From: Arthrobacter alpinus
Lineage (GTDB): Bacteria > Actinomycetota > Actinomycetes > Actinomycetales > Micrococcaceae
DNA length: 64,000 nucleotides
Reading direction: 5' to 3'
NCBI RefSeq assembly: GCF_001294625.1
Contig: NZ_CP012677.1
Span: 2,418,001 to 2,482,000, forward strand
The translations under genes and the position numbers were made by a program. The notes under the pieces were generated by a model. It searched no databases. It saw only the letters and a program-made list of their open reading frames with translations, and had not been told where the DNA came from. This document shows positions 39,849 to 44,577 of this stretch, in pieces (the first letter of the stretch is position 1; every line of letters begins with the position of its first letter).

Positions 39849-39924
39849 CGCCGAGGTAGACGGTACGCCTCCGAGCCGTCAGCTGCGCAGCGTTTGCCTC
39901 GGCACGGCTCCGTCTACCTCGGCG
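39849..39924 (-). terminator. Nested inverted repeat overlapping the regulator 3' end
   Basis: Perfect 15-bp arms (39849-39863 and 39910-39924; CGCCGAGGTAGACGG) enclose 46 bases that contain a smaller inner dyad (AGCCGT/ACGGCT). The right arm includes the stop codon of the SufR-like regulator. It probably separates that gene from iscS. Confidence 0.65.
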
Positions 39925-40687
39925 GGCCTGACCGCGGCAGCAGCCGGGCGCAGCAGTGGGAGATGTTCGCGTCGGGCGCCAGATCGTGGCGCTGATCCCC
40001 GCACCCTTCCAAGGCGCCGCTGAGCAGGGAACCATTAAGCGAGCACACCACACCCGTATGGTCTTGGGACAGCCGGTGGAAGGGGCAGTTGGCCATGATG
40101 GTTCCGCCTTCGCCGTCTGGCTCGGGACTATATCCGGCACTGTGCAGCAACTGGTGGATGTCCCCGGCCGCGGCCCCCCTGCGCTGTCCCTCCCGGTACG
40201 CCACCTGCGCCAGTGACTTTTCAATGTCCGTCCCGGTGTCGATCGAGTGCTGCACGGCAGCGGCCAACAATGAAGCGGCAAGATCGTAGTGCCGCGGCGG
40301 AACTGAGGCGCTGACTTCGCTGTGCGCGGCGGTGTAGAGCTTGGTGGGGCGCCCGGATCCGGGCCCGGTCCTCTCCCCCATCTTGCGAAACTCAACCAGC
40401 AACAACCGTTCCTCAACAAGCCTGTCCAGGTGCGCCCGGATGGTGCTCCTGGGCAGGCCGAGCCCCGCTGCACAGTCATCACGGCTCAACGCGTGGCCGG
40501 AATCGCGCACCAGTTCAAACAGTTTCTTTCGCAACGGGTCCCCCAGTGAGGCAACTGCTGCAAGCCGCTGGCCGTCGTCAAGCCCTGAACGCAGTGCCAC
40601 CATCGTGTCAGCGTTCGCCCTTGTGCTGATCTGCACAATCTGCTTGTCTGGATGGTGTGTGGACGGGTGCCGCACCGGTTGATTCAT
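39914..40687 (-). CDS. SufR-like winged-helix regulator with Cys ligands for a possible Fe-S cluster
   Basis: From ATG 40687 the protein has 257 residues. An ArsR/COG2345-type winged helix covers about 40-115 (LGDPLRKKLFELV, RSTIRAHLDRLVEERLL). The C-terminal part has C201-x13-C215-x13-C229-x15-C245-C246, close to the C-x12-C-x13-C-x14-C cluster site of cyanobacterial SufR, and CPFHRLSQDHTGVVC is typical of this family. It is therefore likely a redox- or Fe-S-responsive repressor. An upstream ATG at 40738 would add 17 residues but lacks a ribosome site. It diverges from the folE operon, whose promoter holds a perfect dyad, and lies upstream of iscS. Confidence 0.82.
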   Translation of the reverse strand: MNQPVRHPSTHHPDKQIVQISTRANADTMVALRSGLDDGQRLAAVASLGDPLRKKLFELVRDSGHALSRDDCAAGLGLPRSTIRAHLDRLVEERLLLVEFRKMGERTGPGSGRPTKLYTAAHSEVSASVPPRHYDLAASLLAAAVQHSIDTGTDIEKSLAQVAYREGQRRGAAAGDIHQLLHSAGYSPEPDGEGGTIMANCPFHRLSQDHTGVVCSLNGSLLSGALEGCGDQRHDLAPDANISHCCARLLPRSGPPR

Positions 40688-40761
40688 CACCGTTGGCCTT
40701 GTGCTCTCTTGCCGCCGCGCATTCCGCGCCGGTGGCATGTTGTGGATTGTTTCGCGCCTAC

Positions 40762-40790
40762 TTGACGCTTTGAGTCTGCGCTTCTAAAGT
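40762..40790 (+). promoter_or_regulatory. Promoter of the folE operon
   Basis: TTGACG (40762-40767) and TAAAGT (40785-40790) are spaced by 17 bases, a good fit to a primary sigma promoter. The -10 overlaps the left arm of a dyad, the arrangement expected for repression. Confidence 0.6.
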
Positions 40791-42777: not shown

Positions 42778-43706
42778 TGGAGGGTATGAACTCGCCGTTT
42801 TATACCCCGCCGCTGCGCCACCCTGTGCGCCAGTTCGGCGCCAGGACCTTGGATTTCAGCCACCAGGTGGCCCTGATGGCCATCGTCAACCGGACACCTG
42901 ATTCCTTTTACGACCGCGGGGCCACCTTTGCCCTGGACGCCGCGGTGGCCGCTTCCCTGGCTGCCGTGGACGACGGCGCCGACTGGGTTGACATTGGCGG
43001 GGTACCTTTTGCCCCGGGGCCGGCCCTGGGCGCCGCGGAGGAAGCCGACCGCGTGATCCCGGTGATCGAGGCTGTGTCGGCGGCCAGCAACGTCATCATC
43101 TCGGTGGACACCTTCTTGCCGGAGGTGGCACTGCGGAGCATCGCCGCCGGCGCGCACGTCATCAACGACACCACCGGTCTGGCCAACCCCGAGATCGCGT
43201 CCGTGGTGGCCCAGTCGGGCGCCCACCTGATCATCACGCATTCACTGGCCAAACCGCGCACCGTGTTCCCACAACCCCGCTACAGCGACGTTGTGGCGGA
43301 GGTGGCGGCGTTCCTGAACGACAAGGTGGAGCTGGCCATGTCCTTGGGCGTCCCCCCGGAGAAGATCATCGTCGATCCAGGACACGACCTGAACAAAAAC
43401 ACCTTACACACCCTGGAGATCACGCGCCGTTTCAACGAGATCGCCGCACTGGGGTTCCCGTCGCTGGCTGCCGTGTCCAACAAGGACTTCATTGGCGAGA
43501 CGCTCAACCAGGACAAGGCAGCCAGGTTGGAAGGCTCGCTCGCCGCCGGAGTGATCTGCATTTTAGGTGGCGCCCGGATTCTGCGCATGCACAACGTGGC
43601 CTCCGCCAGCTCCGCCATCCACATGACCGAGGCGGTGCTGGGGTGGCGCGAACCTGCCTATCTCAAGCACAACATGGGCGACGTGAACGACGCTGCCCGC
43701 AGCTAG
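42777..43706 (+). CDS. FolP2-like dihydropteroate synthase paralogue
   Basis: This 309-residue TIM barrel belongs to the pterin-binding family. Kept are IVNRTPDSF (38-43 core), D72-IGG, SVDT (D111), IND (131), DPGHDLNK (D200, K207) and MHNV (H272). The canonical DIGGESTRPG loop is replaced by DIGGVPFAPGP, and the SRK substrate motif is SNK (234-236), as in M. tuberculosis FolP2, which was reported to lack dihydropteroate synthase activity. It may bind a pterin but join it to something other than p-aminobenzoate. The start overlaps the preceding stop. Confidence 0.85.
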   Translation: MEGMNSPFYTPPLRHPVRQFGARTLDFSHQVALMAIVNRTPDSFYDRGATFALDAAVAASLAAVDDGADWVDIGGVPFAPGPALGAAEEADRVIPVIEAVSAASNVIISVDTFLPEVALRSIAAGAHVINDTTGLANPEIASVVAQSGAHLIITHSLAKPRTVFPQPRYSDVVAEVAAFLNDKVELAMSLGVPPEKIIVDPGHDLNKNTLHTLEITRRFNEIAALGFPSLAAVSNKDFIGETLNQDKAARLEGSLAAGVICILGGARILRMHNVASASSAIHMTEAVLGWREPAYLKHNMGDVNDAARS

Positions 43707-43767
43707 ACCCAGCGCCCGTCCGCCACACCCCGCCCTGCGGGGACCTGCCAAACTTCAGGAGCACGCC

Positions 43768-44577
43768 ATGATTGAGCGAATCTTCCCGGCAACCCCGGAT
43801 GCCTCCGGCCCGGCCAGCGATCAAGACCTGCTGCGGTGGTATGGTTCCGGCCTGCCCGAAGATCCCGCCGCGCCGTGGGTCAGCTTCAACTTTGTCGCCA
43901 GCATCGATGGGGCTGCGACCTTAAATGGCCGCTCCGGAGGACTCGGCAACGCCCAGGACCAACGCGTATTCCAGTTGCTGCGCCGACACGCCGACGTGAT
44001 CGTGGTGGGTGCTGCAACCATCCGGGCCGAAGGCTATGGCGGGGCGCTGCTCAGCGAGGAGGCACAGCGGTGGCGCACCAGCCGGGGCCTGGCCGGGCAC
44101 CCGCCGCTGGCCATCGTCTCGGGCACCCTGAACCTGAATCCGGCCCATGAGGTATTCGCCCGGGCACCCGTGCGCCCCCTGATCTTCACGGTTGCCAGCG
44201 CCCCGGCGGAGCGAAGGGAGGCGCTGTCCGGGGTGGCCGACGTCGTACTGGTGGGCGGTGAATCCCTGGACGTTGGGTTGCTGGTCGGCGAACTGGCATC
44301 CCGCGGCCTGTTCCGGATCCATTCCGAAGGCGGGCCGACCCTGCTGGGCACCTTCCAGGCCGCCGACCGCGTCGACGAGCTGTGCCTGACCATCTCGCCA
44401 CTGCTAGCCGGCGGCTCCGGACCGCGCATCTCGACGGTAGCCGGGCCGGGCACAGCCGGGTCGGGAACCGGCCAGGCCGCCCACACCATGGCGCTGGCCC
44501 AGATCCTCAAGGCAGACTCGATGCTGTTCCTGCGCTACCTGCGCCCGGGCAGCCAAATACCCGAAGCAGCACGATAA
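43768..44577 (+). CDS. RibD C-terminal/DHFR-fold pyrimidine reductase family protein
   Basis: The 269-residue protein has only the reductase domain of RibD: NFVASIDGAATLNGRSGGLG, VIVVGAATIRAEGYGG, the NADPH-binding HSEGGPTLLGTF and a C-terminal LCLTISPLLAGG. It resembles M. tuberculosis Rv2671, which can stand in for dihydrofolate reductase. It probably reduces a pterin or flavin precursor with NADPH. ATG 43768 has GGAG upstream. It follows the FolP2-like gene by 61 bp on the same strand and is the last gene of the set, converging on a lipoprotein gene. Confidence 0.85.
   Translation: MIERIFPATPDASGPASDQDLLRWYGSGLPEDPAAPWVSFNFVASIDGAATLNGRSGGLGNAQDQRVFQLLRRHADVIVVGAATIRAEGYGGALLSEEAQRWRTSRGLAGHPPLAIVSGTLNLNPAHEVFARAPVRPLIFTVASAPAERREALSGVADVVLVGGESLDVGLLVGELASRGLFRIHSEGGPTLLGTFQAADRVDELCLTISPLLAGGSGPRISTVAGPGTAGSGTGQAAHTMALAQILKADSMLFLRYLRPGSQIPEAAR

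What the first reader, a model, noticed from the sequence alone, without database searches (positions are those of the whole stretch)
39914..44577. Possible redox-controlled pterin pathway: SufR-like regulator plus FolE, ferredoxin reductase, FolP2-like and RibD-like genes
Seen: folE, a BphA4-type reductase, a FolP2-like barrel and a RibD/DHFR-fold reductase lie in one plus-strand set, and the reductase stop overlaps the FolP2-like start. A regulator with five C-terminal cysteines diverges from it. folB and folK are absent. Known: FolE makes dihydroneopterin triphosphate; M. tuberculosis FolP2 was reported to lack DHPS activity; Rv2671 (RibD-like) can act as a dihydrofolate reductase. Inference: the operon makes or recycles a pterin that is not ordinary folate and is switched on when Fe-S or redox state changes, with the ferredoxin reductase supplying electrons.
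Basis: partly seen in the sequence, partly recalled or inferred. Interest (0 to 1): 0.75.

Follow-up and report, generated by a model that had tools for sequence, protein, structure and literature searches.

The report
Redox-switched second pterin gene set
An Arthrobacter-like bacterium carries, besides its normal vitamin-B9 (folate) genes, a second altered set next to a regulator gene with a conserved palindromic DNA site between them, and this regulator likely senses nitric oxide or redox stress and is predicted to switch the set on to make a pterin that would not be folate.

Summary
In detail: the five genes are at 39914-44577 without folB or folK, and the genome has a complete ordinary folate cluster and a DHFR elsewhere, so the finding's own refutation fails.

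New: (1) The regulator's invariant cysteines (40 of 40 sequences) have the published spacing of ArnR, a [4Fe-4S] nitric-oxide-responsive repressor (C-x13-C-x29-C), not SufR's. (2) A palindrome, TCTAAA-N15-TTTAGA, overlaps the predicted folE promoter. The genome has one other copy, at the start of a DoxX-like membrane gene, whose homologues lie beside folE elsewhere. In relatives the same site precedes fdr-folP2-ribD or fdr. This outlines a regulon: regulator, DoxX-like, FdR, plus a pterin arm (FolE, FolP2, RibD). (3) FolP2 keeps pterin-pocket residues and lacks pABA-side ones.

Against a pure pterin reading: two tested genomes of another genus have regulator, DoxX-like gene and site but no FolP2 and no second FolE; 22 of 34 FdR-folP2 loci have no site; 15 of 25 distant regulator loci show no such palindrome. 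Ligand, product and electron partner are untested. SufR is disfavoured; ordinary folate backup is possible but less likely.

The parts
39914..40738 (-). ArnR-like winged-helix regulator gene; C218, C232, C262 (and C263) conserved; true start uncertain
40762..40790 (+). predicted sigma-70-type promoter TTGACG-N17-TAAAGT for folE
   Evidence: consensus match only
40782..40810 (.). palindrome TTCTAAAG-N13-CTTTAGAA, predicted operator, overlapping the -10 hexamer
40821..41426 (+). second FolE (GTP cyclohydrolase I) of a distinct subtype; metal and catalytic residues kept
41527..42777 (+). FdR, FAD/NAD-dependent reductase of the BphA4/HcaD class with Reductase_C domain (ORF from 41410)
42777..43706 (+). 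FolP2-type pterin-binding protein; pterin-pocket residues kept, pABA-side residues replaced
43768..44577 (+). Rv2671-type RibD_C reductase

Best explanation
The window holds a regulator gene back to back with a folE-fdr-folP2-ribD gene set, with a conserved palindrome over the predicted folE promoter between them, and this is likely a stress-switched regulon in which an ArnR-like repressor, predicted to carry a [4Fe-4S] cluster, would release the palindrome when nitric oxide or oxidants destroy the cluster. Shown by comparison: the palindrome, its second copy before a DoxX-like membrane gene, and its recurrence before fdr-folP2-ribD or fdr in some relatives. Inferred: the core job (DoxX-like protein plus the FAD reductase FdR) is redox protection at the membrane; the pterin arm makes or keeps reduced a non-folate pterin that serves this redox module. 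In that arm the second FolE would make dihydroneopterin triphosphate, FolP2 would bind a pterin and use an acceptor other than pABA, and the Rv2671-type protein would reduce a dihydropterin with NADPH; the host's canonical FolB and FolK could supply the hydroxymethylpterin pyrophosphate.
For: Regulator Cys spacing x13 (40 of 40) and x29 (33 of 40) equals ArnR C179/C193/C223. Palindrome: only 2 strict sites in the own genome, backwards control 0; 19 sites in 13 of 21 further genomes, 13 at regulator-folE and 6 at the same DoxX-like gene, control 0. DoxX-like homologues lie just upstream of folE in 5 of 36 FolE-subtype loci and are also found in L041, L105 and L128. Regulator homologue divergent from folE in 24 of 36, FdR downstream in 11 of 36. 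Of 30 site loci in the family, 26 carry module genes. Site before fdr-folP2-ribD without folE in L023 and L036. ribD directly downstream of folP2 in 68 of 80 loci, FdR directly upstream in 34 of 80. FolP2 pterin residues kept and pABA-side ones replaced in 82 sequences. Second canonical folate set.
Against: Core without pterin genes: G002 and G281 have regulator, DoxX-like gene and site (L188, L195) but no FolP2 of 190 bits or more and one FolE of ordinary score. 22 of the 34 loci with FdR just before folP2 have no strict site. folP2 and ribD accompany only 1 of the 36 FolE-subtype loci, and FolE only 12 of the 80 FolP2 loci. Only 6 of 25 regulator loci outside the FolP2 set show both search forms of the palindrome, 4 more one form, 15 none; L041, L043, L058 and L078 also none. 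No pterin-dependent hydroxylase or NO synthase in the genome. No direct comparison with an ArnR sequence. The control in the family scan is not zero (27 against 111 sites).
Confidence: 0.47

Rival explanations
1. A redox or detoxification regulon (ArnR-like repressor, DoxX-like protein, FdR) in which FolE and FolP2-RibD are co-transcribed neighbours doing separate jobs, with no shared pterin product.
For: 15 of 30 site loci hold only regulator and DoxX-like gene, 7 hold FdR without the regulator. G002 and G281 have the core without FolP2 or a second FolE. FolP2 and RibD also occur together without the regulator.
Against: Regulator and folE are divergent neighbours in 24 of 36 loci of many families; folE, folP2 and ribD are also together in L133, in another gene order, and a different FolE lies directly before folP2-ribD in L076.
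Confidence: 0.28
2. A standby folate route: a second FolE and a DHFR-like reductase top up folate when redox stress damages reduced folates; FolP2 is a weak or conditional dihydropteroate synthase.
For: FolE catalytic residues intact in 49 of 49; FolP2 is over the TIGR01496 DHPS cut-off, 243 against 162.6 bits; Rv2671 is called a DHFR functional analogue in a title that I saw only in a reference list.
Against: pABA-side residues of FolP2 are replaced in 81 or 82 of 82 at most of these positions; M. leprae FolP2 did not complement an E. coli folP mutant (passage in PMC1971073); canonical folP, folB, folK and DHFR are present elsewhere.
Confidence: 0.17
3. A SufR-type regulator of iron-sulfur supply that happens to lie beside pterin genes.
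For: ArsR-like winged helix and C-terminal cysteines; a cysteine desulfurase gene lies next door.
Against: Cys spacing x13/x29 against x12/x27 in Rv1460 and C-X12-C-X13-C-X14-C in cyanobacteria. The SufR palindrome CAAC-N6-GTTG occurs once in the window, at 22851, not at this locus. The own genome's two strict sites are at folE and at the DoxX-like gene.
Confidence: 0.06

Closest known systems
ArnR of Corynebacterium glutamicum ([4Fe-4S], NO-responsive repressor of narKGHJI and hmp)
   Same: ArsR/MarR-like winged helix; three invariant cysteines with the same spacing (x13, x29); found in Actinobacteria
   Different: Predicted targets are folE-fdr-folP2-ribD and a DoxX-like gene instead of nitrate reductase and hmp; a fourth cysteine (C263) is nearly invariant; cluster and ligand untested
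SufR (cyanobacteria; Rv1460)
   Same: Winged helix plus C-terminal cysteines
   Different: Cys spacing x12/x27 and operator CAAC-N6-GTTG against x13/x29 and TCTAAA-N15-TTTAGA
M. tuberculosis FolP2 (Rv1207, 2vp8)
   Same: Best solved match; same loop and SNKD/HD motifs
   Different: Here next to FdR and ribD; a paper passage says that folP2 clusters with cell-wall genes in high-GC Gram-positives
Rv2671 (4xrb)
   Same: Best solved match over residues 30-251
   Different: Directly downstream of folP2 here (68 of 80 loci)
Canonical actinobacterial folate cluster (this genome, 3.59 Mb)
   Same: Also has a folE and a folP
   Different: Has folB and folK; FolE 53% and FolP 33% identical to the window copies

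Membership tests
ArnR-type regulator | Three conserved Cys spaced x13 and x29 | tested here: met
   x13 in 40 of 40, x29 in 33 of 40 (28-31 in the rest); ArnR positions from a passage of PMC12343034
ArnR-type regulator | ArsR/MarR-like winged-helix N-terminal domain | tested here: met
ArnR-type regulator | Conserved His near the cluster | tested here: inconclusive
   H221 of the CPFH motif in 32 of 40; whether it is ArnR's His is not known to me
ArnR-type regulator | Binds [4Fe-4S] and releases DNA with NO | not testable with these tools
   needs purified protein
ArnR-type regulator | Sequence homology to the ArnR protein itself | not tested
   no ArnR sequence was at hand
SufR | Cys spacing of Rv1460 (x12, x27) or C-X12-C-X13-C-X14-C | tested here: not met
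SufR | Operator CAAC-N6-GTTG | tested here: not met
   one match in the window, at 22851, none at this locus
Dihydropteroate synthase (functional FolP) | pABA-side residues T62, R63, F190, R220 (E. coli numbering, recalled) | tested here: not met
   replaced: T62 by F in 81 of 82, R63 in 82, F190 by L in 81, R220 by N in 82
Pterin-binding TIM barrel / FolP2 | Pterin and pyrophosphate residues N22, D96, N115, D185, K221, R255, H257 (recalled) | tested here: met
   82 of 82 each, D96 in 79; best solved match 2vp8
GTP cyclohydrolase I | Metal and catalytic residues (C, H, H, Q, E, H, C; roles recalled) | tested here: met
   49 of 49; over the cut-off of NF006826 and NF006825, below TIGR00063 (169.5 against 181.6)
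Rv2671-type RibD-C reductase | NCBIfam pyrimidine reductase family models | tested here: met
   over the cut-off of NF010663 (185 against 184), below NF010664 and NF010665
DoxX | PF07681 over its cut-off | tested here: inconclusive
   own protein no hit; homologue in L131 20.0 bits against 23.6; named DoxX-like only

The most novel reading that the evidence does not exclude
Actinobacteria run a nitric-oxide/redox-induced pathway to a reduced pterin that is not folate: a dedicated FolE, the long-orphan FolP2 (which would join a pterin to an acceptor other than pABA) and the orphan Rv2671-type reductase make it, FdR recycles it, and an ArnR-like [4Fe-4S] repressor switches it together with a DoxX-like membrane protein.
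Probability: 0.3. Interest if true: 0.85.

Novelty: new variant of a known kind. Interest (0 to 1): 0.62.

Why it matters
FolP2 and Rv2671 are conserved actinobacterial proteins whose pathway, as far as the passages I saw go, is not settled. Here ribD lies directly behind folP2 in 68 of 80 loci, and in some lineages both stand behind one predicted operator of an Fe-S-type repressor, with a dedicated GTP cyclohydrolase, a flavin reductase and a distant DoxX-like membrane gene. This makes the FolP2 question directly testable in a harmless Arthrobacter strain: which pterin appears when the operator is released. It also proposes an ArnR-like regulon other than nitrate respiration and hmp.

Tried and rejected
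NO synthase or pterin-dependent hydroxylase as the pterin user: both absent from the genome (PF02898, PF00351). Anti-phage system: PADLOC gave only weak Csa3 winged-helix hits to the regulator. Co-occurrence of FolP2 with the FolE subtype: uninformative; FolP2 of 190 bits or more is in 23 of 24 genomes with and 18 of 24 without the subtype (48 of the 345 genomes, picked by hand). Reading the L133 short-chain dehydrogenase as a dihydropteridine reductase: dropped, NCBIfam gives only generic SDR models. NCBIfam gives the regulator no name. The fold search spanned mainly the winged helix; the C-terminal Cys domain was not folded alone. Four of the 30 site loci (L196, L201, L212, L213) carried no module gene.

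Controls and biases: over 245 family genomes the strict pattern gave 111 sites against 27 for the backwards control (counted by hand from the table), in the 16 own-genus genomes 33 against 1; only 30 of the 111 sites came as loci, and the own-genus sites of that call were not inspected. L205 and L206 are the same places as L029 and L021, so they add nothing independent. 80 of the 82 FolP2 sequences were found with short query peptides, one of them NKDFIGET, so the SNKD motif is partly kept by selection; L133 and 2vp8 were not so chosen. Regulator homologues were found by similarity to the window protein. The regulator count of 15 in 80 loci (tblastn) is 13 by blastp.

Papers: found passages only were seen of PMC1971073, PMC12343034, PMC8593673, PMC6034842, PMC10436651, PMC5445326 and PMC11888242; of PMC7809127 and PMC10530724 only entries of their reference lists; other papers only as search listings. 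That M. tuberculosis FolP2 lacks DHPS activity I saw in no passage. No paper of the library held three or more of DoxX, GTP cyclohydrolase, FolP2, ArnR and ferredoxin reductase; most subscription journals are missing from it.
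Full report
What is there. The window lies at 2418001-2482000 of a single-contig 4.05-Mb genome; the best named relatives of its FolP are Arthrobacter strains. The FdR stop TGA (42775-42777) overlaps the FolP ATG (42777). Among solved structures the FolP is nearest to M. tuberculosis FolP2 (2vp8) and the RibD-like protein to Rv2671 (4xrb).

Is it the only folate set? No. Searches of the genome found a second FolP (272 bits against 206 for the window copy), a second FolE (253 against 195 bits) and one canonical DHFR. 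The other copies form a cluster at 3.59 Mb behind an ORF that reads as ftsH: folE, folP, folB (L003 10175-10558) and folK. The two FolE share 53% identity over 174 residues and the two FolP 33% over 218. The genome's FolB and FolK have no match in the window.

FolP2. In 82 FolP2 sequences (80 loci, the window and L133) the residues that hold pterin and pyrophosphate in E. coli DHPS (roles and numbers recalled) are kept: N22, N115, D185, K221, R255 and H257 in 82, D96 in 79. On the pABA side T62 is F in 81, R63 is A, S, G or K in all, F190 is L in 81 and R220 is N in 82; the S222 position is D in 82, but the canonical FolP of this genome has R there, so that one is weak. The alignment with M. 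tuberculosis FolP2 shows the same SNKD and HD motifs. A published passage says that M. leprae FolP2 does not complement an E. coli folP mutant and that folP2 clusters with cell-wall genes in high-GC Gram-positives (PMC1971073). FolP2 thus most likely binds a pterin but does not use pABA; this is inference from residues.

Gene neighbourhoods. In 80 FolP2 loci, ribD lies directly downstream on the same strand in 68; 5 more have it otherwise placed and 7 have no match. FdR lies directly upstream in 34, a FolE of the window subtype upstream in 12, and a regulator match on the other strand in 15 (13 by blastp). The window FolE belongs to a subtype set apart by score: 51 matches of 190 bits or more in 48 of 345 class genomes, the next at 173.6 (counted from its table). 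Of these 51, 36 were fetched with wider flanks. In 24 of 36 a regulator homologue diverges from folE, in 11 FdR follows, in 5 a DoxX-like and in 14 a DUF2231 gene lies just upstream; folP2 and ribD are there only in L133, where the order is regulator, DUF2231, folE, a short-chain dehydrogenase, ribD, folP2. Two modules, regulator/folE-FdR and folP2-ribD, have thus come together in the window lineage, in three Microbacteriaceae loci (L041, L043, L078) and, without FdR, in L133.

The operator. The gap between regulator and folE holds TTCTAAAG-N13-CTTTAGAA over the -10 of a predicted promoter. TCTAAA-N15-TTTAGA recurs in 9 of the 13 other FolP2 loci that have a regulator (not in L041, L043, L058, L078). 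Among 25 regulator loci of the FolE-subtype set, 6 from other families show TCTAA and TTAGA arms with one base more between them (L129, L131, L132, L139, L157, L163), 4 a weaker form, and 15 none. The own genome has just two strict sites and none for the backwards control. The second stands at the start of a gene for a 153-residue DoxX-like membrane protein. In 21 further genomes a slightly looser pattern hit 13 genomes at 19 distinct places: 13 at the regulator-folE gap and 6 at the same DoxX-like gene; 8 genomes had none and the control gave none. Homologues of this DoxX-like protein lie just upstream of folE in L129, L131, L132, L143 and L145, and tblastn finds it in L041, L105 and L128 too.

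A wider scan of 245 genomes of the family gave sites in 74; all 16 genomes of the own genus have two or more. Thirty of 111 sites came as loci: 15 with regulator and DoxX-like gene, 7 with FdR and no regulator, 4 with regulator, folE and FdR (two of them places already seen) and 4 with no module gene. In L023 and L036 the site stands before FdR-folP2-ribD with no folE, with the same promoter layout as in the window. But 22 of the 34 loci with FdR directly before folP2 have no strict site, and over the family the backwards control is not zero (27 against 111), so a single site outside the module may be chance.

The regulator. C218, C232 and C262 are invariant in 40 sequences (window, own-genome paralogue, 38 locus homologues), C263 is in 39, C246 in 12. 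The spacing is x13 in all and x29 in 33, 28 to 31 in the rest. Published positions give x13 and x29 for ArnR of C. glutamicum, which binds [4Fe-4S] and loses DNA binding with NO (passages of PMC12343034), x12 and x27 for Rv1460 (PMC6034842), and C-X12-C-X13-C-X14-C with operator CAAC-N6-GTTG for SufR (PMC8593673); that operator is not at this locus. The AlphaFold model has mean pLDDT 90.3 and an ArsR-type winged helix. The own-genome paralogue at 3.70 Mb lies beside a DUF2249 gene and an ORF that reads by eye like a copper nitrite reductase, which fits a nitrogen-oxide theme. I call the regulator ArnR-like, not a proven ArnR.

How it most likely works. Inferred: with its cluster intact the protein represses; NO or oxidants destroy the cluster; the promoters open; DoxX-like protein and FdR act in redox protection; the second FolE raises dihydroneopterin triphosphate, and FolP2 and the Rv2671-type reductase turn pterins into a reduced, non-folate form. 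Against a purely pterin reading, genomes G002 and G281 have regulator, DoxX-like gene and site (L188, L195) but no FolP2 of 190 bits or more and one FolE of ordinary score. The core is therefore more likely regulator, DoxX-like and FdR, with the pterin genes an arm added in some lineages. No enzyme of PF00351 or PF02898 is in the genome.

Novelty. No paper with three or more of the terms DoxX, GTP cyclohydrolase, FolP2, ArnR and ferredoxin reductase was found, within the limits of that library. The parts are of known kinds; the regulon that joins them, and a FolP2-Rv2671-type operon behind a predicted Fe-S repressor site, were not met in these searches.

Noticed in passing
L165 (own genome 3692000-3709000), 7588-13015: A regulator paralogue (25% identical, same Cys pattern) lies beside a DUF2249 protein and ORFs that read by eye like NnrS and a copper nitrite reductase.
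   Followed up: partly
L076 3438-5816: A different FolE (44% to the canonical, 35% to the window copy) overlaps the start of folP2-ribD in a Glaciihabitans MAG: another FolE-FolP2-RibD joining.
   Followed up: partly
L133 (G244) 3920-13000: folP2, ribD, folE, DUF2231 and regulator lie together with cysteine desulfurase and mnmA, as in Arthrobacter, in a genome of another family; an etfA-like ORF (by eye) is next to folP2.
   Followed up: partly
L152 and L164: FolE of the window subtype next to a FolK-like match, an SDR and an argS-like ORF (last two by eye).
   Followed up: no
L131 and L149: A transaldolase-like ORF (by eye) beside FolE of the window subtype.
   Followed up: no
L029 about 4500-4637: Between regulator and FdR only a 46-residue folE match is left.
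   Followed up: no
L212 (site about 1501-1527), also the sites G471:C31:91078 and G512:C1:820108: The same site sequence TCTAAATCGGAAATTGCTAGTTTTAGA recurs in several genomes of one genus away from the module genes.
   Followed up: no
window 44585-45343 (-): A 252-residue protein with a lipoprotein-like start and no Pfam or NCBIfam hit; homologues lie near ribD in close relatives.
   Followed up: no
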